NCBI RefSeq assembly: GCF_025153525.1
Contig: NZ_JANZNR010000003.1
Span: 62,001-126,000, forward strand
Origin: Psychroserpens sp. SPM9
GTDB lineage: Bacteria > Bacteroidota > Bacteroidia > Flavobacteriales > Flavobacteriaceae
Reading direction: 5' to 3'
DNA length: 64,000 nucleotides
The translations under genes and the position numbers were made by a program. The notes under the pieces are model-generated. The model ran no database searches. It had not been told where the DNA came from and worked only from the letters and a program-made list of their open reading frames with translations. Shown here one piece after another: positions 1 to 11,449 of the stretch. Position 1 is the first letter of the stretch; every line of letters begins with the position of its first letter.

Positions 1-357
1 TCTAATTATGTTAGCTCTGGTGATGAAAACACCTATGACTATTATAAAATAGTTACACAAACGGAAGGTAAAATTAGGTTTGCACTAGATAGTTGTCCGT
101 CTGATCTTTGGATATCTTGTGCTCTAAGAAACTCAAGTGGAGCTCAAATAAATGGTCAATATACAACCATTATTGGTGATGCAAATACCCATCAACCTGG
201 TACAACGTATTATTATGAATCAAATAGCATCTATCCAGCTGGCACTTACTATGTTCAATTACAAATGAATGGTGTGACTGTTGTGGATTTAAATACAGAC
301 AGTATCCCAGAATATTGGAATACACCTTATACGTTCACAGTAACAACTATTGAATAA
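1..357 (+). CDS. C-terminal part of an exported protein (partial, cut by left edge)
   Basis: An open frame enters from the left edge in frame 1 and ends at a TAA at 355-357, giving the last 118 residues of a longer protein. The visible part is rich in Tyr, Thr, Ser and Gly, begins SNYVSSGDENTYDYY and has a segment with alternating hydrophobic residues around residues 20-45 containing two Cys (SCPSDLW, ISCALR). This looks like a beta-sandwich of the kind found as accessory domains in secreted bacterial proteins (PPC-like or similar), which is a fold-level guess only. There is no T9SS sorting domain at the C-terminus. The function cannot be told without the N-terminal part. Confidence 0.7.
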   Translation, partial: SNYVSSGDENTYDYYKIVTQTEGKIRFALDSCPSDLWISCALRNSSGAQINGQYTTIIGDANTHQPGTTYYYESNSIYPAGTYYVQLQMNGVTVVDLNTDSIPEYWNTPYTFTVTTIE

Positions 358-535
358 TTACATATGCTTGTTAAATATAATGGGTAGTAAAAAAAGCTTT
401 TCTATTCAAATCACTGAAAAAGTAAATATTAGATTTTTGATTGGTGTATTGTAGATATAAAGCTAAATGAATTTGTAAGTATTGAAGAAACAATTATTAT
501 CTAAATTAATAGTAAACTATTTAGTCATGAATTAT

Positions 536-1492
536 ATGAAAAAATCATTTATTTTACTACTCATTCTATTTCCTGTTCTTTTCAATTGTAAAACGGAGAA
601 AAAATCTGAATCTATTGATAAAACAATTGTAGAGGTTGAAGCAGCAGTAAAAGAACCTGAACATGTTATCGATGTGATATCAAGAGGCATGGATTTTCAA
701 TCGGTAGATACGATTCCGTCGGGTTGGAATACTTTTAAATATCAAAACCGTTCTAATGAAACACATTTCTTTCTACTAGATAAATATCCCGAAGGAAAAA
801 CGGTTGAAAACACCTTAAGTGATGTCGCTCCAGTTTTTGCTGAAGGTATGGATTTGATTAATAACGGAAAACCAGAAGAAGGATTTGCCGCATTTAATAA
901 ACTTCCTAAATGGTATTTTGATATAGTATTTTCTGGAGGCGTTGGATTAATTGCACCTAAACATACCGCAACCACAACAGTTAAATTAGATCCTGGCTAT
1001 TATATTATGGAATGCTATGTAAAAATGCCTAATGGCATGTTTCATACCTTGATGGGCATGGCAAAACCTATTATCGTTACCGACGAAGATAGTGGCAATT
1101 CACCTCCTGAAGCTACCATTAACATTACGCTTTCAGCTGAAGATGGCATCTCCTATAACAAAGGAATCATAAAAGGGAAACAAATCTTTTCAGTATTTGT
1201 AAAAGATCAAAAACCACACGAAAATTTTATATGGCATGATGTGAATTTAGTTAAACTTGAAGATTACGCAAGCGAAGATGAGTTGGAGGCTTGGATGGAT
1301 TGGACAAACCCGAAAGGTTTAATAACACCAGTTCCTAATGGCGTAACGTTTTTAGGAGGCGTTAACGATATGCCTGCTGGAAGTACAGGTTATTTTTATG
1401 CCGATTTAAAACCTGGTAAATACGCGTTGATTTCTGAAGTGCCAAATACAAAATCGAAAAATATGTTTAAAGTGTTTGATGTTATTGATTAA
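536..1492 (+). CDS. Lipoprotein with two cupredoxin-like repeats, function unknown
   Basis: The frame opens upstream, but the ATG at 536 (a second lies at 527) starts MKKSFILLLILFPVLFNCK, a typical lipoprotein signal with Cys at about residue 18, so the mature protein is probably outer-membrane anchored. The rest shows two related halves. The first runs from about residue 50 to 180 and ends in DPGYYIMECYVKMPNG followed by FHTLMGMAKP. The second, about 195 to 318, carries KDQKPHENFIWHDVNLVKL and ends LKPGKYALISEVPN. This 'PGxY...H...GM' layout resembles cupredoxin-like extracytoplasmic domains seen in unrelated bacteria. I see no convincing copper site. The stop codon overlaps the end of the ribB remnant on the other strand. 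Confidence 0.75.
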   Translation: MKKSFILLLILFPVLFNCKTEKKSESIDKTIVEVEAAVKEPEHVIDVISRGMDFQSVDTIPSGWNTFKYQNRSNETHFFLLDKYPEGKTVENTLSDVAPVFAEGMDLINNGKPEEGFAAFNKLPKWYFDIVFSGGVGLIAPKHTATTTVKLDPGYYIMECYVKMPNGMFHTLMGMAKPIIVTDEDSGNSPPEATINITLSAEDGISYNKGIIKGKQIFSVFVKDQKPHENFIWHDVNLVKLEDYASEDELEAWMDWTNPKGLITPVPNGVTFLGGVNDMPAGSTGYFYADLKPGKYALISEVPNTKSKNMFKVFDVID

Positions 1493-1533
1493 TAATTAAC
1501 ATATTCTACAATTTCCAATCCGTAACCAATCAT
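1489..1533 (-). repeat. 45-bp direct repeat, left copy (ribB 3' end)
   Basis: This segment is identical over 45 bases to 10295-10339, the last 15 codons of ribB including the stop. The two copies point the same way and bracket 8.8 kb of regulator and surface-protein genes, like the ends of an inserted or duplicated segment. Confidence 0.9.
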
Positions 1534-1606
1534 GCCAGAATCATTTAAATCTACATCAATACGCGAAGTGCCTTGGCAATTTGTCGGTCAACTTGATCGC
1601 TTCTAA
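1489..1606 (-). pseudogene. Decayed 3' fragment of a ribB (DHBP synthase) copy
   Basis: Read on the minus strand, the fragment ends with the codons for MIGYGLEIVEYVNY and a TAA, exactly as the intact ribB at 10295-11449. Bases 1489-1533 are identical to 10295-10339. Beyond that an internal stretch of about 80-90 bases of ribB is missing, and 1540-1606 aligns to about 10430-10500 with many substitutions and at least one frame-shifting indel (the part matching ANQVDGQIAKAPRIEMD). No start codon or upstream part remains, so it cannot make a product. It is in the same orientation as intact ribB, 8.8 kb away, and its stop overlaps the stop of the lipoprotein gene on the plus strand. Confidence 0.85.
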
Positions 1607-1731
1607 AACACCTGAAGCTGTTAAATCTTCATTGCTATAAATTTTGTAACCCATTTTGGTTACATAAGTTTTAATGGTAAGAAAATCAATTCACTAATAT
1701 TGCTTAACTTTAATAAGTAATTACATAAGTA

Positions 1732-4641
1732 ATGGTTAAGTGTTTTGGTCTCGTATTATTTTTGGTTAGTTTTTGTACGGTAACCTATGGACAAAAACCT
1801 TCTAATTATATTAGAGATTCTATTCAAACTATTGAAAAACACGAACAGTTTGAAACTACCTTGCATACCGATATCCTAAAAGCTAAAACCTATTTAGAGA
1901 CACTCCATCACTTATCATTAACAAGTACCTATCCTAAAACAAGCTATTATTTTCATCATGATTCGGGTAATTATTATTTTGTAGTACATGATTTAAAATC
2001 ATCTCAAAAACATTATCAGAAGGCTTATAATATAGCGACAGCATTATCCTATAATAAAGATGCTATTACTGATAAAATATGGTTGGCAAATCTTAAATAT
2101 TTTCAAGGAAAGTACTCGGCATCAAAACAGATGTATCATGAAATTCTCAATGAAGCTATTGCCGAAAATTATTTAGACGGAATTGCAAATGCCTACTATG
2201 GCTTAGCAAGTATGGAAATCGACAAGAAGCAAGTACTTAATTGGTTGATAAAAGTAGATTCGGTGTACACAAATGCCGATACTGTAAGTCCCATACTTGC
2301 TAACGCTAATGAAGTTATGGGAAAAATTTATCTTGAGACCTATCAGAATAAACAGATGGCTAAAGTTTATTTTAATAAAGCTTTAGAAATTTCAAAATCT
2401 ATTAATTATCAAGACGGAATCCAAAGTTTGCATGTTACACTAGGAAAACTCTCTTTTGAAGATGGTAATTACAAACAAGCCTATGCTTTTTTTAATGAAC
2501 TGCTACATTATGATACATTAAAAAATGACACCTTAAATATTGCTCGGGATTTTTCAGAACTGGCTCGAATTGATATACAAACTAATAATTTTAATACAGC
2601 TGAAGAACGCCTACAGATCGCTACATCTTATTTTGAAAAATTAAGCGATACCGTTTCTCAAATCAATGTCAGTTTGATGTTTACTGAGCTGTATATTAAA
2701 TCTGAAAATATAGTAAAGGCGACTCAGTCCTTAAATCAAGTAGAGCTATTATCATTCAAGCTTGATAATTATAATTTTACTGAACGCTATTACACCAACA
2801 CCATTGCACTTTTTGAGTTAAAAGGAGATTATAAACAAGCCTTATTAAAGCAAAAAGCCTTAGACAGTTTTAAAACCGAAAGTTTAAACAAACAAAACAC
2901 ATCCGCGTTTTTAAATTTGGAACGTCAATACGAATCTGAGAAAAAAGCCAAAGAAATTGAACTTTTAAAATCTAAAAATCAACTGGTATTTCAAGAAAAA
3001 GCACACCAGCGCAATCTGTTATTGGGAGCTATTGCTTTAGCAACATTAACAGGATTGTTCTTTTTCTTTCTCTATCGAAACCGACAAAAAACCAACATAA
3101 AACTCAAAGTCTTAGATCGTTTTAAATCCAAGTTTTTTGCTAATATTTCCCATGAATTTAGGACACCACTGACTTTAATTTCCGGACCAATAGAAAGGCG
3201 TTTGGATGCTGAAGGATTAAGTTCTGCTGACCGTTCAGAGTTTGAGATGATTCAGCGTAATTCAAACAGATTGTTGAGTTTAGTTGACCAGTTATTAGAC
3301 CTTTCCAAATTAGAAGCTGGCAAGTTTAAGCTAAAGGTTCAGGAAGGCGACCTAACCGTGTTATTAAAATCTATTGCAGCCTCTTTTCAATATCTAGCCG
3401 CTCAAAAACAAATCAATTATCAGTTAGATATTCAGAAAATAAATAAGGCGTGGTTTGATAAAGATGTTATTGAAAAAATAGTGACAAATCTCCTATCAAA
3501 TGCATTTAAATATTCAAAAAACGAGACGACTATTAAGTTTAAGGCATTATCTAATGGAAATGATCTGGAAATGACAATTGAAAATGAAGGTACAATTATT
3601 ACCAAAGAAACCATTGATGCTATTTTTAATCGCTTTTATCAATCTGATGAAACGAAAGATGGCGTGGGTATCGGACTCTCATTAGTAAAGGAGTTGGTTG
3701 ATTTGATACATGGAAATATTACAGTTGAAAATACCAAGCATCACCGAATATTGTTTACGGTGAAAATTCCGATTATTCAGCAAAGTTTTAAATCTACTGA
3801 AACTATTTTAGAATCCTCAACTTCCGAATCGAGATCAAAACCGCTAATATCAAATGATTCTGAAGATGAAGTGCACACGATTGATGAAGATTTACCAATA
3901 TTATTAATAGTTGAAGACCATCAAGATGTAAGGCTGTTTATAAAAAAGGAGTTTAAAACAACCTACCAGATTCTTGAAGCCGAAAATGGTGAAGACGGAC
4001 TTAAAAAAGCCATTCAGTTTGTGCCAGATATTATTTTAACAGATGTTATGATGCCAAAAATGACAGGCTTTGAACTTTTAACACGATTAAAAACAGACGA
4101 AAAAACCTCGCATATCCCAATTATATTATTAACGGCTAAAGTGGAAGAAGAAGATCAGTTTAAAGGTTTAGAAACTGGAGCTGATGATTATATAACAAAG
4201 CCGTTTAAAATGAGTCTTTTAAAAAAGCGAATAGAAAATTTAGTCGCTTCTAGAGCAAAACTCCGTGAGCGTTATAGTCAAGAATTAATATTAAAACCCA
4301 AAGACATAACCATCACGAGTTTCGATGAACAGTTTCTTGAAAAAGTAGCAACCGTTATCGATAATAATCTATCAGAAGCTTCATATAGTGTTGATGATTT
4401 TAGCAAAGCCGTTGGGATGAGCAGAATGCAATTGCATCGTAAACTAAAAGCTTTAACAGGGCAATCGGCAACTGAGTTTATACGCACTCAACGATTAAAA
4501 TTAGCAGCTTCATTATTAAAGAAGAGCGATATCAATATTTCTGAAATTGGTTATATGGTTGGGTTTAATAACCATTCCTACTTCACCAAATGCTTTAAGG
4601 AAGCTTATGGTTGCTCGCCTACAGAGTTTATCTCCAAATAA
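1732..4641 (+). CDS. Hybrid two-component sensor kinase/response regulator with TPR sensor and AraC-type output (969 aa)
   Basis: This is a one-protein signalling system. A signal peptide (residues 1-20, ending TYGQ) is followed by a periplasmic TPR-like helical region (about 30-400), a coiled coil, one membrane segment (about 428-447, LLLGAIALATLTGLFFFFLY), and a HisKA domain with phospho-acceptor His474 (FFANISHEFRTPLTL). Next come an HATPase domain (N box NLLSNAFKYS at about 586; GVGIGLSLV), a receiver with phospho-acceptor Asp771 (ILTDVMMPKMTG), and a C-terminal AraC helix-turn-helix (about 865-969). Flavobacterial hybrid regulators commonly control adjacent surface or uptake genes. It precedes the exported-protein cluster on the same strand and may regulate it, which is inference. 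It lacks the beta-propeller sensor of SusR-like regulators. The ATG at 1732 fits the signal peptide. Confidence 0.93.
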   Translation: MVKCFGLVLFLVSFCTVTYGQKPSNYIRDSIQTIEKHEQFETTLHTDILKAKTYLETLHHLSLTSTYPKTSYYFHHDSGNYYFVVHDLKSSQKHYQKAYNIATALSYNKDAITDKIWLANLKYFQGKYSASKQMYHEILNEAIAENYLDGIANAYYGLASMEIDKKQVLNWLIKVDSVYTNADTVSPILANANEVMGKIYLETYQNKQMAKVYFNKALEISKSINYQDGIQSLHVTLGKLSFEDGNYKQAYAFFNELLHYDTLKNDTLNIARDFSELARIDIQTNNFNTAEERLQIATSYFEKLSDTVSQINVSLMFTELYIKSENIVKATQSLNQVELLSFKLDNYNFTERYYTNTIALFELKGDYKQALLKQKALDSFKTESLNKQNTSAFLNLERQYESEKKAKEIELLKSKNQLVFQEKAHQRNLLLGAIALATLTGLFFFFLYRNRQKTNIKLKVLDRFKSKFFANISHEFRTPLTLISGPIERRLDAEGLSSADRSEFEMIQRNSNRLLSLVDQLLDLSKLEAGKFKLKVQEGDLTVLLKSIAASFQYLAAQKQINYQLDIQKINKAWFDKDVIEKIVTNLLSNAFKYSKNETTIKFKALSNGNDLEMTIENEGTIITKETIDAIFNRFYQSDETKDGVGIGLSLVKELVDLIHGNITVENTKHHRILFTVKIPIIQQSFKSTETILESSTSESRSKPLISNDSEDEVHTIDEDLPILLIVEDHQDVRLFIKKEFKTTYQILEAENGEDGLKKAIQFVPDIILTDVMMPKMTGFELLTRLKTDEKTSHIPIILLTAKVEEEDQFKGLETGADDYITKPFKMSLLKKRIENLVASRAKLRERYSQELILKPKDITITSFDEQFLEKVATVIDNNLSEASYSVDDFSKAVGMSRMQLHRKLKALTGQSATEFIRTQRLKLAASLLKKSDINISEIGYMVGFNNHSYFTKCFKEAYGCSPTEFISK

Positions 4642-4715
4642 ATCCAACTACATTTTATTAGCAACTTTAAAGCTCATGTTACGTGAGTTACAGCATCAGT
4701 TACATATCTGATAGT

Positions 4716-4738
4716 GCTAAGCATACACTATGCTTAGC
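4716..4738 (+). terminator. Perfect stem-loop 75 bp after the regulator gene
   Basis: A 10-bp perfect inverted repeat (GCTAAGCATA, loop CAC, TATGCTTAGC) is followed by TTTACTTAC rather than a clean T run. It could be a weak intrinsic terminator of the regulator mRNA or an operator for the cluster downstream; the 3-base loop and short T tract leave this open. Confidence 0.5.
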
Positions 4739-4796
4739 TTTACTTACTAATTAGAAAAGTTGGTTATAGCAATTGTGAACCCTTCATCAATTAACT

Positions 4797-4946
4797 ATGA
4801 AGAAAAAATCCTTAGAAGGTGTGATTCCAAAACTAACAACACATAATATTTACTTAAATGTGAATCATTTAGAAAAAGGAAGTTATAAGCTAAAAATAGT
4901 GCTTAAAAATAAGATTATAAAAAGCACATATTTCACTAAAGATTAA
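4797..4946 (+). CDS. Small hypothetical protein (49 aa)
   Basis: An ATG at 4797 opens a 49-codon frame ending in TAA at 4944, in the gap between the regulator and the first surface-protein gene and 16 bp before the latter. The product is very basic, starts MKKKSLEGVIPKLTT and ends GSYKLKIVLKNKIIKSTYF plus TKD. It has no signal peptide or membrane segment. The tail 'LxxGxYxLKIxxxxKxIKSxxFxK' reads like the last strands of a beta-sandwich or a T9SS type A sorting tail, so it may be the remaining end of a larger exported protein as easily as a real small gene. Confidence 0.5.
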   Translation: MKKKSLEGVIPKLTTHNIYLNVNHLEKGSYKLKIVLKNKIIKSTYFTKD

Positions 4947-4962
4947 TCTTAAAAACGGCATA

Positions 4963-5973
4963 ATGAAAGTAAAAGTTACAATCGTATTCTTCTTCTTGAG
5001 TTTAACTACAATTTTTTCACAAAGCGGAATTAATTACAAAGCTGTTGTTAAAGATGATTTAGGAAATGTTCTAGTTAACCAGCAAGTTATAATACAATTT
5101 TCTATTCTAGAAACGCCTAATCAAATTAATGTTTATCAAGAAACCCATGTAACAAGCACTAATGCAAATGGCATTGTAATTATTAATATAGGTGAAGGCA
5201 CAACAACCGATAATTTTGATGCTATAAACTGGGGAAATGACATACACTATCTAAATGTTCAAATAGATAGAGGTTTAGGTTTTGTCGACTTAGGAACCAC
5301 TCAATTTAAAACGGTGCCTTATGCTATTAATGCCGCTAATGTGGTTTGGAAACAAAATACAAGTAACGATGTTTTTTATGATAACCCTGGACATATAGGT
5401 GTTGGCACCAATACGCCTAGTCAGAAATTAGACGTTCAAGGTAAATTAAAGGTTGGAGATGATGGTAATTCTCCAGAAAAGGGAACAGTTCGCTATAATT
5501 TTTTAGATAATGTTTTTGAAGGTCATAACGGAACCCAATGGGATAGGATGACAAAAGAAGATGAAACCAAACCTTATTTCAAAGCCGTACTAACTGCCAA
5601 TACGACCTTTTCGGGAATTATCCAATTTGATAATATTGTCTACGATAATAAAAACGGTTTCGTTGGTACCAACCCAATATTTTATAATGTACAAGAAAGC
5701 GGCTTTTATTTTATATCGATTTCTGTTTTATCACTTTCTGATTTGCAAGTGGTGTATTTAATAAAAAATGGAGCTAGAGTTTCAGGTTTTTTCGCTAATA
5801 GAGACCCTATAAATGATGGGTTGAGAATCACAAGCAGTTTTAATACCATTATATTTCTTGAGGAAGGCGATTCAATATATGTTGAACCAAGCGCTGTCTC
5901 TGGAGGTTCAATAAATATTATGGGCTTTAGCAATTTTGAAGCTACCTATATTTTCGGTTATAAATTATTTTAA
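4963..5973 (+). CDS. Exported protein with C-terminal C1q-like domain (336 aa)
   Basis: A signal peptide (residues 1-19, ending IFSQ) is followed by an N-terminal module of about 100 residues (INYKAVVKDDLGNVLVNQQ to VPYAINAANV). A linker of the type seen in tail-fibre-like proteins comes next (HIGVGTNTPSQKLDVQG; GTQWDRM). From about residue 205 to the end (FKAVLTANTTFSGIIQFDNI; ESGFYFISISVLSL; EEGDSIYV; FGYKLF) the sequence has the spacing and aromatic/Gly pattern of C1q/TNF-like domains, which form trimers. A role as a surface-exposed trimeric binding protein is inferred. The N-terminal module is shared with the next gene, 12 bp downstream, indicating paralogues with swapped ends and probably one transcript. 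No T9SS sorting domain is present. Confidence 0.75.
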   Translation: MKVKVTIVFFFLSLTTIFSQSGINYKAVVKDDLGNVLVNQQVIIQFSILETPNQINVYQETHVTSTNANGIVIINIGEGTTTDNFDAINWGNDIHYLNVQIDRGLGFVDLGTTQFKTVPYAINAANVVWKQNTSNDVFYDNPGHIGVGTNTPSQKLDVQGKLKVGDDGNSPEKGTVRYNFLDNVFEGHNGTQWDRMTKEDETKPYFKAVLTANTTFSGIIQFDNIVYDNKNGFVGTNPIFYNVQESGFYFISISVLSLSDLQVVYLIKNGARVSGFFANRDPINDGLRITSSFNTIIFLEEGDSIYVEPSAVSGGSINIMGFSNFEATYIFGYKLF

Positions 5974-5985
5974 AATTATAATACA

Positions 5986-8253
5986 ATGAAAACATTACTT
6001 ACAATATTGATGGCCATGCTTTTTACAAGTTTAAGTTTTGCGCAACAAGGTATTAACTACAAAGCGGTCATTAAAGACAATTTAGGCAATGTAGTTACTA
6101 ATACTACTATAGGTGTACAGTTTAGAATTTTACAGGGAGCTGGACAAGTTAATGTATACGAAGAAACGCACTCGCCAACTACAGATGCCAACGGAATGAT
6201 CATATTAAATATTGGCTTAGGAACCACTTCTGATGTTTTTACAGATATTGATTGGGCTAACGATGAGCACTTTTTAAATGTGCAAGTTAATTTGGGTTTT
6301 GGTATAGTTGATATGGGTACAACACCTTTTAAAACGGTGCCATATGCTATCAATGCTGAAAATGTTAGAGGCTTAGAAATTTTAGACGAAGGCAATGGTT
6401 TTGGTTGGCGGTTAAAAGGTAGAGATCCAGCGTTTTATGGGAATATCGGACTTGAAGCTACGGATTTAAGTTATAGTAATGAAAACACGAATATACTTGG
6501 AGCACTAGGAAGCTATTCAGTAGCTATGGGATACAATTCTACAGCATCTGGTAATGGGTCAATTGTTTCTGGGTTTTCTACAAATGCTTCAGGAGCTGGG
6601 TCAGTAGCAATGGGTTCATTTTCAGCTGCTACAGGGATTTACTCAACCGCTTTTGGATATAATAGCACAGCTTCAGGAGATACTTCATTGGCTATTGGAA
6701 GCAACACTATGGCTTCTGGATCTAGATCCATTGCCATGGGATTTGATACGGTAGCATCAGGGTTGAATGCTACAGCCTTTGGAAATGGTACGACAGCTTC
6801 TGGTGCTGGGGCATTTGCTATAGGCGCTTTCACCACGGCACCATCAATATTAGAAACTGTGATCGGGCGTTTTAACACAAGTTATACGCCTATATCTGCC
6901 GTTGACTGGTTTAGTACCGATCGGCTTTTTGTAATAGGTAACGGAACAAGTACAACGCCTAGCAATGCGCTTACTGTTTTAAAAAACGGAACAATTACTG
7001 CACCGAGTTTTGATTTAGCTGAAATTACCGATGACAAAGCATTAACAACCAAAGAATATGTAGATCAAAATGCTGCATCAGGCTTAGAAGCCTTAGACGA
7101 AGGCAATGGTATTGGTTGGAGATTAATAGGAAGAAACCCATCATATTATGGTAATATCGGTTTAAGAGCAGTAGATTTTAGTTTCAATAGTCAAGAATCA
7201 GGTACCTATGGTGCTATTGGTACTTCATCAGTGTCAATGGGAACTGAAACATTGGCCATTGGAAATCGTTCAACAGCAATGGGATATAATACAGAAGCAT
7301 CTGGATATACTTCTACAGCAATAGGTGCTCATACATTAGCTATTGGAGATTATTCTAACGTAATAGGTTTTGGTTCTGCTGCAATTGGTGATTATGCTAC
7401 AGCAATTGGAGTTGATGCTAGAGCAGAGGGGGATTTTTCTACAGCATTAGGATTTGGTCCTACAGCACTATCGTATGGAGAAATAGCTATTGGAAGACTT
7501 AATACAATTTATACTCCTAATAATGCAATTGACTGGGATAGTGCAGACCGATTATTTGTTATTGGTAATGGTACTAATGTTGTTAATCGAAGCAACGCAT
7601 TAACTGTACTAAAAAATGGAAATACAGGTATTGGTACAGCAACACCAGATTATAAACTGGAAGTTTCTGGTACTACAAATATCAATGAAGGTGTGAGTTC
7701 TGGGATTGCTTTAAGAGTTAATGGAGACGAAGCTCTTTGGTATAACGGCAATTATTTTAGTTGGGGATATGGTACTGGTACGGGCTATAATTTCTTTGCG
7801 ACCAATGTTGGTCTTGGTATGTATAACCCAAATGTGCGATTAGATGTGAATGGTTCTATAGAATATACCGGGACAATTACCGATGTTTCTGACAGAAGAC
7901 TAAAGGAACATTTTAAATCAATTGAAAACCCTTTGGACAAAATCAAGCAAATTACCGGTCTTTCCTATAATATGATTGATGATGAAGATAAAAAACGCGA
8001 ATATGGTGTTATCGCTCAAGATGTACAAAAGATGTTTCCAGAAATGGTAAGTGTTGTTGATGAAGAACATGGCTATTTAGGAGTGAGTTATATCCAGCTC
8101 ATTCCAGTCTTGTTGGAAGCCCTTAAAGAACAGCAAAAGATTATTGAGAATCAAAACTCTAAGTTAGACATGCTAAGCGCTCAAGTTGATCAAATCGAAA
8201 CCTTAAAAAGTCGCCTGTCTCAAATAGAACAGCTCTTAAATACAGAAAAATAA
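5986..8253 (+). CDS. Trimeric-adhesin-like exported protein with duplicated YadA-type head repeats and S74 chaperone domain (755 aa)
   Basis: A signal peptide (1-19, ending LSFAQ) precedes the same N-terminal module as the upstream gene (INYKAVIKDNLGNV to VPYAINAENV). Two long related segments follow, starting at about residues 129 and 366. Each opens with LDEGNGxGWRLxGRxPxxYGNIGL, continues with 14-residue YadA/Hep_Hag-like head repeats (SVAMGYNSTASG, STAIGAHTLAIG) and closes with DRLFVIGNGT and NALTVLKNG. The C-terminus (about 635-755) is an intramolecular chaperone of endosialidase (peptidase S74): S635DRRLK640 keeps the autocleavage Ser and Lys, then YGVIAQDVQKMFPE, then a coiled coil. 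Such domains trimerise beta-helical fibres and then cleave themselves. No YadA membrane anchor is seen. It is probably co-transcribed with the preceding gene. Confidence 0.85.
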   Translation: MKTLLTILMAMLFTSLSFAQQGINYKAVIKDNLGNVVTNTTIGVQFRILQGAGQVNVYEETHSPTTDANGMIILNIGLGTTSDVFTDIDWANDEHFLNVQVNLGFGIVDMGTTPFKTVPYAINAENVRGLEILDEGNGFGWRLKGRDPAFYGNIGLEATDLSYSNENTNILGALGSYSVAMGYNSTASGNGSIVSGFSTNASGAGSVAMGSFSAATGIYSTAFGYNSTASGDTSLAIGSNTMASGSRSIAMGFDTVASGLNATAFGNGTTASGAGAFAIGAFTTAPSILETVIGRFNTSYTPISAVDWFSTDRLFVIGNGTSTTPSNALTVLKNGTITAPSFDLAEITDDKALTTKEYVDQNAASGLEALDEGNGIGWRLIGRNPSYYGNIGLRAVDFSFNSQESGTYGAIGTSSVSMGTETLAIGNRSTAMGYNTEASGYTSTAIGAHTLAIGDYSNVIGFGSAAIGDYATAIGVDARAEGDFSTALGFGPTALSYGEIAIGRLNTIYTPNNAIDWDSADRLFVIGNGTNVVNRSNALTVLKNGNTGIGTATPDYKLEVSGTTNINEGVSSGIALRVNGDEALWYNGNYFSWGYGTGTGYNFFATNVGLGMYNPNVRLDVNGSIEYTGTITDVSDRRLKEHFKSIENPLDKIKQITGLSYNMIDDEDKKREYGVIAQDVQKMFPEMVSVVDEEHGYLGVSYIQLIPVLLEALKEQQKIIENQNSKLDMLSAQVDQIETLKSRLSQIEQLLNTEK
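6370..7620 (+). repeat. Internal duplication of the adhesin head module
   Basis: Two diverged copies of a roughly 200-residue module lie at 6370-6993 and 7081-7620. Both begin at a Gly-Leu-Glu codon run and share the order of landmarks (DEGNG, YGNIGL, head repeats, IGR.NT.YTP, DRLFVIGNGT, NALTVLKNG). Identity is low in the middle and high at the landmarks, so this is an old intragenic duplication and not a recent tandem repeat. Confidence 0.8.
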
Positions 8254-8354
8254 CAAGTGAAACAAAAGTTGCTTTATGTAATGCATTAGTTATAAAATGG
8301 TATGCAAATTAGCAATGATTTTATTTCAGATTAAAACTATAAATACAATTCAAT

Positions 8355-9329
8355 ATGAAAACAATCGTCACATTAGCAATCGCAATTTGTTGCTGTTTTC
8401 TGAATAATGCCCAAACGATTGAGAAGTTTAGTATCGATAGTGGAGGGGCTTCAGTAACCGCTGCTGGCATAGATATGTTATACACTATTGGTGAGGTTAA
8501 TATTCAAGAATTGAGTGTGGGAAACGTTCAGGTTTCTGAAGGTTTTATTAACGCCGACTTTAGAGTTCTAATACATCCAATAGTGTTTTTACAAGGTCCT
8601 ATATTAAATCCATCAACGCCCGGACTTATGAATGATGATTTGAGAGTTAATGCATTAATTCCGACGACTAGTCCTTACGCAGATAACGCTACAGTTAATG
8701 CTACTGTCTTTGATGTAACAGGTAATGATGCTATAGTAGATTGGGTGTGGCTAGAACTTCGAGCCTCGGATGATAATTCGAGATTAATTAATGCGCGTTC
8801 TGCTTTGGTGCAACGTGATGGTGATGTGGTTGATACCGATGGTGTTTCAAATGTAATCATGCAGGCTTCATCGACTAGTTATTACGTTGTTATCAAACAT
8901 CGTAATCATTTAGGAGTAATGTCACTCGCTACAATCGGATTGTCAGATAATACGACAACTGTAGTTGATTTTACGAATAGTGCTTTTGCAACCTTTGGTA
9001 ATAATGCTCAAGCGGAATTAGATGCGAATACAGTAGCACTTTGGTCTGGAGATGTGAATGCTAGTAATAGTATCACTTTCTCAGGTACCAACAACGATGT
9101 TAATGCTATTAAAGATTATGTGCTTTTAGATCCTATGAATGTTCTAAACTTTATCACCTTTTCATCTACAGGTTATTTAAATGAAGATTTAGATTTAAAT
9201 GGTTTTGCACGATTTTCTGGGTCACCAAACGATAGTAATATCATAAAAGATAATGTGTTAAATCATCCGCTAAACTTTCTTAATCTGCCTACCTATAATA
9301 TTAATACAACTGTGCCTGCACAAAATTAA
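8355..9329 (+). CDS. Exported protein with dockerin-like C-terminal repeats (324 aa)
   Basis: A signal peptide (1-19, CCCFLNNAQ) is followed by a short beta-rich region (SGGASVTAAGIDMLYTIGE). A beta-sandwich-like domain (about 85-210; NATVFDVTGNDAIVDWVWLE, SYYVVIKHRNHLGVMS) comes next. Near the C-terminus are two similar Asp/Asn-rich loops, GDVNASNSITFSG with NNDVNAIKDYVL, and DLDLNGFARFSG with PNDSNIIKDNVL, arranged like the paired calcium loops of dockerins. No T9SS tail is present. It lies 102 bp after the adhesin gene and 12 bp before a T9SS-sorted partner, so it is likely part of the same surface operon. The idea that it docks on the next protein is inference from the paired architecture. 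Confidence 0.65.
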   Translation: MKTIVTLAIAICCCFLNNAQTIEKFSIDSGGASVTAAGIDMLYTIGEVNIQELSVGNVQVSEGFINADFRVLIHPIVFLQGPILNPSTPGLMNDDLRVNALIPTTSPYADNATVNATVFDVTGNDAIVDWVWLELRASDDNSRLINARSALVQRDGDVVDTDGVSNVIMQASSTSYYVVIKHRNHLGVMSLATIGLSDNTTTVVDFTNSAFATFGNNAQAELDANTVALWSGDVNASNSITFSGTNNDVNAIKDYVLLDPMNVLNFITFSSTGYLNEDLDLNGFARFSGSPNDSNIIKDNVLNHPLNFLNLPTYNINTTVPAQN

Positions 9330-9341
9330 AACTTTAAAACC

Positions 9342-10133
9342 ATGAAACAATTTTACCTTTTATTTGTCGTTATTTTTAGCGCCTTCAGTGTTAATTCACA
9401 AAATTATGAATTCGGAATTGTCCATAACCAAGATTATACATTTTCTGTGGTCGCAGTTCCAGATTTTGATGCAACAGATACTGATATATCTGATATCGGA
9501 TTTGCTTTAATGTTACCCGCTGGAAACGCCGATATAGAGAATGTATCCCCATTTAATAGTCGTGTTTGGTCTGCCACAGAGGTAACTGCAGAACAACTCA
9601 CAACCTTTGGTTTAGGGGATGGAACACGAGATGGTTTTGTTATGAATCTACCACCAGGACAAACTATTTTATCACATGTAAGTGGTGAACCTTTTGTGTT
9701 GGTGACTTTCGATGTTAGTAATACGCCAACGACTGGTTCCTTAGAATTATTAACAAATTCAGATCCTATTGCCATAGGCTTAGGAGGTGCTGTTGATAGT
9801 TTTTATAATTCTAATATTGATGGTACAACTACGCAAGATTATTTTGGAGGCTTTATCACCGGAATGGAGAGTATTATGTTTGATACCTTATCAACTCTTG
9901 AGGTGATTATAGACGATTCGGTGTCTGTTTACCCTAATCCGGCATCTGATATTATTTATATTAAAACATTAAATACTATTGAAAGTCTTCAGTTATTTGA
10001 CATTTTAGGAAAGCGAGTAGTTAATTCAAAAAACGAAAATGAAATTAAAGTGAGCGATTACCAATCAGGTGTTTATGTGTTAAAAGTTAAAACGAACAAG
10101 GGACAAGTCATTAAGAGAATAGTTATCGACTAA
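9342..10133 (+). CDS. T9SS-sorted exported protein, possibly cohesin-like (263 aa)
   Basis: A signal peptide (1-19, ending VNSQ) is followed by a single beta-sandwich domain (about 22-170; DISDIGFALMLPAGNADIE, LPPGQTILSHVSGEPFVLV). The description of a value as a bounded quantity within a beta-sandwich is reminiscent of cohesin-like domains, but I cannot prove it. The last 70 residues are a clear type A T9SS sorting domain (VSVYPNPASDIIYIKT, ESLQLFDILGKRV, YQSGVYVLKVKTNKGQV, KRIVID). The protein should therefore cross the outer membrane by type IX secretion and be attached at the surface. It follows the dockerin-like gene by 12 bp. It is the last gene before the ribB end repeat. Confidence 0.75.
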   Translation: MKQFYLLFVVIFSAFSVNSQNYEFGIVHNQDYTFSVVAVPDFDATDTDISDIGFALMLPAGNADIENVSPFNSRVWSATEVTAEQLTTFGLGDGTRDGFVMNLPPGQTILSHVSGEPFVLVTFDVSNTPTTGSLELLTNSDPIAIGLGGAVDSFYNSNIDGTTTQDYFGGFITGMESIMFDTLSTLEVIIDDSVSVYPNPASDIIYIKTLNTIESLQLFDILGKRVVNSKNENEIKVSDYQSGVYVLKVKTNKGQVIKRIVID

Positions 10134-10294
10134 CGATTTGATTTAGGATTCATCCTGAATTTAATGTGGATTAGATAGCTTTGAAGCTGTTTAAACTCTA
10201 GTTTTTTAAGCGTATTAAGGTCTTGAAGTGAATGCTTCTTTGAGAGATATAAATTTAAAGCTGAAATCAATTTGCTGAAACGAATAGGAATTTG

Positions 10295-10339
10295 TTAATA
10301 ATTAACATATTCTACAATTTCCAATCCGTAACCAATCAT
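10295..10339 (-). repeat. 45-bp direct repeat, right copy (intact ribB 3' end)
   Basis: This is identical to 1489-1533 and is the functional 3' end of ribB here. With the left copy it frames the regulator and surface-protein block. Confidence 0.9.
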
Positions 10340-11449
10340 ACCAACACGCTTGGTTTGTTGGCTGTTCGAAATTAATTTAAGCTTATGAATGTTTAAATCG
10401 TGTAAAATTTGAGCACCAATACCAAAATCTTTTGAATCCATTTCAATACGAGGCGCTTTAGCAATTTGTCCGTCAACTTGATTGGCTTTTAATATAGACA
10501 AACGCTTCAGTAAATTCATAGATTGCGCTTGCTGATTGATAAAAACAATCGCACCTTTTCCTTCAGCATTAATAACCTTAAACATATCGTCTAATTTTTC
10601 ATCGGCATTATTAGTTAACGTTCCTAAGATGTCGTTGTTAACCAATGTGGCATTTACTCTGGTAAGTACATGTTCGTTGGTAGTCCATGTGCCTTTAGTG
10701 AGCGCAATATGAATTTGATTATTTGTGGTTTGTTGATAAGCACGCAGTCTGAATTTTCCAAATCGTGTTTCGATATCAAAGTCTTCTTTTTTATCAATTA
10801 ACGAATCGTGTTCCATTCGGTAAGCGACCAAATCTTCAATAGATACAATTTTAAGGTCAAACTTTTTAGCCACCTTCATAAGTTCTGGTAACCTTGCCAT
10901 GCTGCCATCTTCATTCATGATTTCAACAATAACTCCTGCGGGTTCTAATCCGGCAAGTCGCGCAAAATCAATAGCTGCTTCGGTATGTCCTGTGCGTCGT
11001 AAAACACCACCATCTTTAGCAACAAGCGGAAAAATATGTCCGGGACGCGCCAATTCAAATGGTTTGGTATTTGGGTCGATAAGTGCTTCAATTGTTTTAG
11101 CTCTATCTGCTGCCGAAATTCCTGTTGTCACACCATTTCCTCTTAAATCTACCGAAACCGTGAATGCTGTTTCCATCGGGTCAGTATTATTATTCACCAT
11201 CATGTGTAAATCTAACTCTTTACATCTGCTTTCGGTTAATGGTGCACAAATCAAACCGCGACCATGCATAGCCATAAAATTGATAGTTTCGGGAGTTATT
11301 TTACTTGAAGCTGCAAGAAAATCACCTTCATTTTCTCGGTTTTCATCATCGACAACTATAATCACCTTTCCGAGTTTGATATCTTGAATGGCTTCTTCAA
11401 TCGTGTTTAATTGTGTCTGTGATTTATGCTGTGCAGTATTGGTAGTCAT
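10295..11449 (-). CDS. ribB: 3,4-dihydroxy-2-butanone-4-phosphate synthase with degenerate GTP cyclohydrolase II domain (384 aa)
   Basis: The N-terminal half (about 15-215) is a complete DHBP synthase, which turns ribulose 5-phosphate into the four-carbon unit of riboflavin. It has the acidic loop DDENRENEGDF, MHGRGLICAPLT, TGISAADRAKTI, RPGHIFPL and RRTGHTEAAIDFARLAG. The C-terminal half (about 225-384) has the length and tail of GTP cyclohydrolase II (FGIGAQILHDLNI, MIGYGLEIVEYVNY) but contains no cysteine, whereas the active enzyme needs three zinc-binding Cys in a GD...RCDC region. That step must be done elsewhere, so ribB is a better symbol than ribBA. It is the last gene of the ftsK-lolA-lptFG-ribB set. 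A second, broken 3' end lies at 1489-1606. Confidence 0.92.
   Translation of the reverse strand: MTTNTAQHKSQTQLNTIEEAIQDIKLGKVIIVVDDENRENEGDFLAASSKITPETINFMAMHGRGLICAPLTESRCKELDLHMMVNNNTDPMETAFTVSVDLRGNGVTTGISAADRAKTIEALIDPNTKPFELARPGHIFPLVAKDGGVLRRTGHTEAAIDFARLAGLEPAGVIVEIMNEDGSMARLPELMKVAKKFDLKIVSIEDLVAYRMEHDSLIDKKEDFDIETRFGKFRLRAYQQTTNNQIHIALTKGTWTTNEHVLTRVNATLVNNDILGTLTNNADEKLDDMFKVINAEGKGAIVFINQQAQSMNLLKRLSILKANQVDGQIAKAPRIEMDSKDFGIGAQILHDLNIHKLKLISNSQQTKRVGMIGYGLEIVEYVNY

What the first reader, a model, noticed from the sequence alone, without database searches (positions are those of the whole stretch)
1489..10339. 8.8-kb regulator and surface-protein block bracketed by direct copies of the ribB 3' end
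Seen: bases 1489-1533 and 10295-10339 are identical over 45 positions in the same orientation; the right copy ends intact ribB, the left copy belongs to a decayed fragment. Between them lie a hybrid regulator, a small ORF and four exported proteins with trimeric, dockerin-like and T9SS features. Known: elements that insert next to a gene's 3' end leave such direct repeats. Inference: the block is an inserted cassette or the product of recombination between two ribB copies. No integrase is visible, which argues for homologous recombination.
Basis: partly seen in the sequence, partly recalled or inferred. Interest (0 to 1): 0.75.

Follow-up and report, generated by a model that had tools for sequence, protein, structure and literature searches.

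The report
Two stacked surface-gene modules beside ribB
In a marine bacterium, a chromosomal slot that related species fill with different surface-protein gene sets holds two sets in a row, and a small scar made of two broken gene ends suggests that they were joined by an off-register recombination rather than by a mobile element's integrase.

Summary
The repeat is real: 1489-1533 equals 10295-10339 (45/45). The left copy is a ribB 3' remnant (1489-1606, about 75 nt deleted inside). Directly after it lies a 42-nt in-frame remnant of the 3' end of the DegT-type aminotransferase gene (AT), whose intact copy ends 5 kb to the left. AT and ribB flank a variable slot across Flavobacteriaceae: 2 nt to 13.7 kb in the 73 of 103 loci where AT was seen. 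Relatives show the empty slot, the left module alone and right-type modules alone. This genome (Psychroserpens by its neighbours) carries both modules in tandem with a [ribB'|AT'] scar between them, as an off-register, microhomology-joined crossover between two AT-module-ribB alleles would leave. No tyrosine integrase was found in the slot. Two congeners (G013, G015) carry a similar scar. The right module recurs at other loci: regulator, 49-aa protein, trimeric-fibre-like proteins, dockerin-like protein, T9SS protein. Closest known kind: integrase-free replacement genomic islands; new are the stacking and its readable scar. Age, which module came second, and why 45 nt stayed identical remain open.

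The parts
1..357 (+). 3' part of a 411-aa protein gene (starts about 880 nt left of the window); left module
   Evidence: ORF; 96.9% nt identity to G005; no Pfam family at E 0.001
482..1492 (+). lipoprotein-like gene ('482 gene'; ATG at 536 is a likely start), last gene of the left module; in 9 relatives it abuts ribB with overlapping stop codons
   Evidence: predicted model mean pLDDT 81 with weak cupredoxin-type matches, TM about 0.25
1489..1606 (-). ribB' : decayed 3' end of ribB, 49 nt at 48/49, then about 75 nt deleted, then about 75 nt at about 78%
1599..1640 (+). AT' : in-frame 3' end of the DegT-type aminotransferase gene (ASKTPEAVKSSLL*), joined to ribB' at GCTTYTAA (1599-1606)
1645..1664 (.). 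inverted repeat TGTAAC-N8-GTTACA, 87 nt before the regulator; the only exact TGTAAC-N7/8-GTTACA in this genome
1732..4641 (+). hybrid two-component regulator: TPR, HisKA, HATPase_c, Response_reg, AraC-type HTH
4797..4946 (+). 49-aa protein; relatives of it lie after 13 of the 14 related regulators compared
4963..5973 (+). trimeric-fibre-like protein with C1q-like tip
5986..8253 (+). trimeric-fibre-like protein with YadA-head repeats and S74 chaperone domain (SDRRLK read in the sequence)
8355..9329 (+). exported-looking protein with dockerin-like repeats near its end (read by eye)
9342..10133 (+). T9SS type A sorted protein
10295..11449 (-). intact ribB (ribBA-type), right border of the slot; its last 45 nt are the right repeat

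Best explanation
The slot between AT (DegT-type aminotransferase) and ribB is a hotspot whose content is exchanged between lineages by recombination, without an integrase. In this genome two alternative contents, AT-[LytS, LytR, 411-aa protein, 482 gene]-ribB and AT-[regulator, small ORF, two fibres, dockerin-like, T9SS]-ribB, were stacked: an off-register crossover joined the ribB of one copy to the AT 3' end of the other at a short microhomology (GCTTYTAA), leaving [ribB'|AT'] between the modules. Shown here: the scar and its order, the single-module and empty states in relatives, the mosaic identity of the left module, no tyrosine integrase found in the slot. Inferred: that one off-register event made the joint, that taken-up DNA was the substrate, that ribB' later lost about 75 nt between short repeats, that gene conversion or youth explains the 45 identical bases, and that the right module makes regulated surface fibres used for attachment.
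For: Scar: ribB' then AT'. AT' reads in frame to its stop; of 5206 plus-strand stops in 76 kb three reach its score (AT itself, AT', one other), and 0 of 4807 minus-strand stops. In G009 and G016, where AT directly borders a regulator of this kind, AT also ends in ..SALL* and the (in G016 degenerate) inverted repeat follows at the same distance. States: empty slot (G014, G011, G018, G008, G006), left module alone (G005), regulator module alone (G009, G016, G002), both (G000, G013, G019). 482-ribB stop overlap in 9 loci of several genera. Slot-specific variability: AT-ribB median 1646 nt, max 13673 (n=73), against ribB-permease median 44, max 642 (n=102) and nitroreductase-AT median 149, max 775 (n=71). 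Mosaic: most 200-nt bins of the left module, from the AT stop to about position 600, are 94-99% identical to G005, flanking bins 65-90%. Regulator tree conflicts with the ribB tree. No listed integrase match in the slot. Similar scars in G013 and G015. ComEC and DprA families present.
Against: AT' is only 42 nt; a nucleotide profile of AT tails did not find it, and the ungapped nucleotide scan ranked it with several equal or higher-scoring sites; one unrelated stop codon reaches the same protein score. CTATAA-N5-GTAAC also occurs before the regulator of a cassette not next to AT (G001), so those last bases may belong to the cassette leader. The 98% identity of the last 49 nt beside about 78% further in is not explained by a single old event. 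In G005, the left-module-alone genome, the 482 gene does not overlap ribB. G019 has both modules but no remnant was seen. No clear further case came from 397 family genomes, of which 62 gave no match at all and one (G369) ends at a contig edge. Which module was resident is unknown.
Confidence: 0.75

Rival explanations
1. A circular DNA made from an AT-module-ribB locus (closed by joining ribB to AT) integrated by one homologous crossover in ribB. The end product has the same order of parts.
For: Predicts the same [ribB'|AT'] scar and one intact ribB.
Against: Needs an excised or closed circle; Pfam shows no replication, relaxase or recombinase domain in the block's proteins (the small ORF).
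Confidence: 0.12
2. A mobile element used the ribB 3' end as its attachment site and was integrated by a recombinase now lost.
For: Direct repeat at a gene 3' end; block absent in G005; the tetranucleotide make-up of the block is the most deviant of the 8.4-kb windows compared.
Against: The left copy extends past the repeat into ribB and then into AT; no listed tyrosine-recombinase match lies in the slot in the congeneric genomes; the slot holds many different contents between the same two genes.
Confidence: 0.04
3. ribB was duplicated in tandem in place and the module entered between the copies; the left copy decayed.
For: Two ribB 3' ends in direct orientation.
Against: Does not explain AT' beside ribB'; no genome with a full second ribB was seen (one match at E 1e-50 in each of the 54 of 57 genomes with a match, own included).
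Confidence: 0.06

Closest known systems
Replacement flexible genomic islands (Lopez-Perez et al. 2014, PMC4033161; abstract and passages read)
   Same: Same chromosomal place, different gene content, exposed cell structures, exchange by homologous recombination between lineages, near-identical island in otherwise divergent genomes.
   Different: Here contents were stacked instead of replaced, leaving a scar of both border genes; the comparison is between species, not strains of one species. The words 'tandem' and 'duplication' do not occur in that main text.
Integrase-free HGT hotspots (Oliveira et al. 2017, PMC5635113; abstract and passages read)
   Same: Variable interval between two core genes, many such hotspots without mobility genes, recombination at flanking core genes proposed.
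   Different: That study gives statistics on 80 species; here one hotspot has a readable joint.
Merodiploid formation by unequal crossing-over during transformation (PMC3784515, PLoS Genet 2013; abstract and passages read)
   Same: Tandem arrangement made by alternative (off-register) pairing of incoming DNA.
   Different: There the joint is at repeats and the duplicated copies are alike; here the joint is at a microhomology and the two modules are different alleles of a slot.
Bdellovibrio mosaic adhesive trimers (PMC10769870; abstract and passages read)
   Same: Exported proteins with a shared N-terminal domain and variable tips, S74 and non-S74 forms.
   Different: The N-domain matches NF053851 below its cut-off (40.9 and 39.7 against 60 bits); this host is not known as a periplasmic predator (recalled).

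Membership tests
Integrase-free replacement genomic island / hotspot | different contents at one place between the same core genes | tested here: met
   2 nt to 13.7 kb in 73 loci, several unrelated contents
Integrase-free replacement genomic island / hotspot | no mobility genes in the slot | tested here: inconclusive
   no listed PF00589 match lies in the slot in the congeneric genomes (places compared by eye; weakest matches not listed; slot not bounded in G015 and G021); Pfam of the block shows none; serine recombinases and transposases not scanned in relatives
Integrase-free replacement genomic island / hotspot | recent exchange by recombination | tested here: met
   94-99% identical stretches between G000 and G005 inside a slot whose borders are 65-90%; regulator and ribB trees conflict
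Integrase-mediated island at a gene 3' end | recombinase gene in or at the end of the element | tested here: not met
   the nearest integrase lies left of the nitroreductase gene, next to a tRNA-Ser
Integrase-mediated island at a gene 3' end | repeat limited to an attachment core | tested here: not met
   left copy carries ribB homology beyond the repeat and an AT end
In-place tandem duplication of ribB | full or nearly full second ribB in some relative | tested here: not met
   one match in each of the 54 of 57 genomes with a match
Mosaic adhesive trimer (MAT) fibres | conserved N-terminal domain after the signal peptide | tested here: inconclusive
   NF053851 at 40.9 and 39.7 bits, cut-off 60
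Mosaic adhesive trimer (MAT) fibres | S74 domain with SDxxxK in S74-type members | tested here: met
   PF13884 E 5.4e-17; SDRRLK read in the ORF of 5986-8253
Mosaic adhesive trimer (MAT) fibres | trimeric fibre on the cell surface | not testable with these tools
   needs protein work

The most novel reading that the evidence does not exclude
The AT-ribB slot is a dedicated, family-wide exchange locus for regulated trimeric-fibre cassettes. Alleles are swapped whole by recombination at fixed convergent stop-codon joints and now and then stacked, which lets one cell carry two repertoires, each under its own two-component regulator. The 45-nt repeats keep the right module deletable in one step, so that stacks act as short-lived diploid states of a surface-variation locus.
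Probability: 0.25. Interest if true: 0.65.

Novelty: new variant of a known kind. Interest (0 to 1): 0.45.

Why it matters
Hotspots without mobility genes are common, and exchange by flanking recombination has been argued largely from statistics and sequence-divergence patterns. A joint made of the two border genes in reverse order is physical evidence of how one hotspot grew by addition rather than replacement, and gives a simple signature to search for at other hotspots. The slot also gathers a recurring set of regulated surface-fibre genes in marine Flavobacteriaceae, a candidate attachment or phage-exposure variation locus.

Tried and rejected
Base composition: G+C of the block (0.343) is not distinct; its tetranucleotide make-up is the most deviant of the 8.4-kb windows compared, but such proteins are unusual anyway, so it was not used as proof of foreign origin. 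A ribB' was sought by blastn in the slots longer than 60 nt of the 103 loci (whole fetched left flank where AT was not seen): clear in 2, own and G013; the other listed clusters were single-query matches. G019 (L043) and L085 have the 482 gene far from ribB but no remnant was found. Of the 16 family genomes with two matches to the ribB 3' end among 397 searched, 10 were one gene split in two, 5 had a short second match elsewhere, and 1 (G369) has a second match at a contig edge that stays unresolved (one search scored only two candidates per genome, and 62 of 397 gave no match). A defence-system reading was dropped: PADLOC matches were only to the kinase and receiver parts of the regulator. 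A promoter/operator reading of CTATAA-N5-GTAAC competes with reading those bases as the AT stop; the protein frame upstream of them decided for AT'. A breakpoint in ribB was looked for: the last 49 nt of the window's ribB are closer to G014 and G009 than to G005, but two distant genomes (L089, L074) are closer still at 94%, so this is only a weak hint. Whether the G000 scar is the same event as in G013/G015 could not be settled. Which module came second could not be settled either: the left module is the one recently shared with G005, while the 482-ribB joint is the widespread one.

Full report
The observation. Bases 1489-1533 and 10295-10339 are identical over 45 positions in one orientation, and that 45-mer occurs twice on the + strand of the window. 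The similarity runs to 49 nt with one difference. The right copy is the end of an intact 384-aa ribB on the minus strand. The left copy is a fragment; beyond the 49 nt it continues, after a deletion of about 75 nt between short repeats, with about 75 nt of ribB interior at about 78% identity.

A second broken gene in the scar. Immediately after ribB' comes GCTTCTAAAACACCTGAAGCTGTTAAATCTTCATTGCTATAA (1599-1640), which reads ASKTPEAVKSSLL-stop. The DegT-type aminotransferase gene (AT) at C33:57434-58627 of the same contig ends about 5 kb to the left of this site. Its product ends in ASKMAEAIKSVI, those of relatives for instance in ASKMVKAIKSSL (L048) or ANKMVEAIKSSL (L071). A scan of all stop codons in 76 kb of this genome against 71 AT tails of relatives found AT itself, this site and one unrelated site at or above its score among 5206 plus-strand stops, and none among 4807 minus-strand stops. 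A nucleotide profile missed it, and an ungapped nucleotide scan ranked it with several equal or higher sites. In G009 and G016, where AT borders a regulator of this kind directly, AT ends in SALL-stop, and the inverted repeat (degenerate in G016) follows 5 nt after the stop as in the window. A regulator cassette elsewhere in G001 also has CTATAAATTTTGTAAC, so the last few bases may be cassette leader; the frame upstream of them supports AT. ribB' and AT' meet at GCTTYTAA, present in both parents.

The slot in relatives. By the named neighbours in the genome collection (uncultured Psychroserpens, P. damuponensis, P. mesophilus) the genus is Psychroserpens. ribB was found in 54 of 57 genomes (own included), one match each. 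There are 103 distinct loci: own, 29 fetched by handle, and 73 of the 80 named ones after removal of 7 duplicates. AT was seen in 73 of the 103. The AT-ribB distance, measured between the last matched codons (2 nt therefore means overlapping stops), is at most 200 nt in 24, 0.2-1 kb in 2, 1-2.5 kb in 31, 2.5-6 kb in 9 and more than 6 kb in 7. The neighbouring intervals vary far less: ribB-permease median 44 nt, max 642 (n=102); nitroreductase-AT median 149 nt, max 775 (n=71). Within the genus (23 genomes with the window's): 6 are empty (2 nt in G006, G008, G011, G014, G018; 59 nt in G020), 6 hold 1.3-1.7 kb, 5 hold a regulator module (G002, G009, G016; with the 482 gene at the ribB side in G012 and G017), G005 holds the left module alone, and G000, G013 and G019 hold both modules. 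G015 looks stacked but lies on two contigs, and in G021 AT was not seen.

The 482 gene and ribB belong together. In 9 loci (L052, L057, L069, L070, L072, L095, L096, L128, L131) the 482 gene ends in GA(T/C)TA(A/G), overlapping the ribB stop; in L091 the two stops lie within a few bases of each other; in G005 a gap of about 110 nt separates them. The same overlap stands in the window between the 482 gene and ribB', so ribB' is read as the old right border of the left module, and the intact ribB as the right border of the right module. AT' is the left border of the right module. The order AT-module 1-ribB'-AT'-module 2-ribB is what an off-register crossover between two versions of the slot gives, or the integration of a circle made from one version; both give the same product.

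Similar scars. G013 has the 482 gene, about 85 nt of ribB', a short joint and the same kind of inverted repeat. G015 has about 90 nt of more decayed ribB' and shares the joint GAATTCCTATAAAATATGTAACC with G013, so those two scars are probably one event. Whether the G000 scar, with more ribB' and AT', is the same event is open. Its last 49 nt match its own ribB at 48/49, better than any of the other 101 ribB ends compared (best 45/49). This points to a younger event or to later gene conversion. In the window's own ribB those 49 nt are closer to G014 and G009 (92 and 90%) than to G005 (80%), while in seven of the other eight bins G005 is closer than G014; but L089 and L074, more distant genomes, reach 94% in the same 49 nt, so this is only a weak hint of a breakpoint.

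Exchange of whole contents. Against G005 the left module is 94-99% identical from the AT stop to about position 600, except for a 63-72% stretch (-2600 to -2000) and one bin at 86%, whereas the flanking bins (nitroreductase region, AT, 482 3' half) are 65-90% and ribB is 84.7%. The regulator tree groups G000 with G016 (95/96), G013 with G019 (100/100) and G009 with G002 (100/99); the ribB tree groups G009, G016 and G014 (99/99). G009 and G016 share 92% of ribB but about 39% of the regulator.

No integrase found. Pfam finds none in the block. None of the Phage_integrase matches listed for the 23 congeneric genomes lies between AT and ribB (I compared the places by eye with those; the weakest matches were not listed, and the slot is not bounded in G015 and G021). 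In G000, G002, G003 and G020 an integrase lies left of the nitroreductase gene; in G000 it is next to a tRNA-Ser, a separate site. ComEC and DprA families are present, which shows only that such genes exist.

The right module. Regulator, 49-aa protein, fibre proteins, dockerin-like protein and T9SS protein recur, with variation in the number and place of the fibre genes, at other places in G001, G004, G006, G007 and G010. Relatives of the 49-aa protein were found in 13 of the 14 loci whose regulators were compared (not L062). The inverted repeat TGTAAC-N7/8-GTTACA occurs once in this genome and once in G009, both times just before the regulator; over the 23 genomes most of its sites lie elsewhere, and the reversed control pattern is found 0-2 times a genome. 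Exact copies lie within 300 nt upstream of 7 of 21 regulator genes examined, and a 2-mismatch copy before that of G016. The 11 long-form regulators (about 1280-1345 aa) have none; among 10 shorter ones G016, G003 and the Mangrovimonas one lack an exact copy. The two fibre proteins share an N-terminal domain that matches the Bdellovibrio MAT N-domain model below its cut-off. Most likely function (inferred): surface fibres with exchangeable tips, made under a local regulator.

Literature. Abstracts or passages of PMC5635113, PMC4033161, PMC3784515 and PMC10769870 were read. In eight searches, each listing at most 12 papers, I saw no listing that describes this slot or a border-gene scar; most subscription journals are not in that library.

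Verdict. A real feature, better explained than first proposed: an exchange hotspot with no integrase found, in which two contents were stacked and the joint is still readable. New variant of a known kind, interest moderate.

Noticed in passing
4797-4946: A 49-aa protein (NVNHLEKGSYKLKIV..) has relatives after 13 of 14 compared regulators of this slot and matches in 17 of 23 congeneric genomes. It resembles part of a T9SS sorting domain by eye but has no Pfam family over cut-off and no signal peptide by eye.
   Followed up: partly
1645-1664: TGTAAC-N7/8-GTTACA lies before 7 of 21 regulator genes and is unique in this genome: a candidate operator with a one-locus regulon.
   Followed up: partly
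about 2600 to 2000 nt left of the window start (L035:9400-10000): Inside a stretch otherwise 95-99% identical to G005, a 600-nt piece of the LytS-type kinase gene drops to 63-72%; it falls in the 7TMR-DISM sensor part, so the sensor alone may have been exchanged.
   Followed up: no
C33:54553-55803 and C33:56039-56126 (left of the window): Tyrosine integrase next to a tRNA-Ser, with integrase matches also left of the nitroreductase gene in G002, G003 and G020: a separate candidate island site about 6 kb left of the window.
   Followed up: partly
482-1492: A lipoprotein-like family without a Pfam family over cut-off, found beside ribB in several genera (not searched for elsewhere); the model has weak cupredoxin/multicopper-oxidase matches, TM about 0.25.
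   Followed up: partly
L046, L049-L051, L053 and 17 further loci: 22 of the 31 slots of 1-2.5 kb have a T9SS-tail match close to ribB (with the size classes): the commonest small content of the slot. The gene itself was not examined.
   Followed up: no
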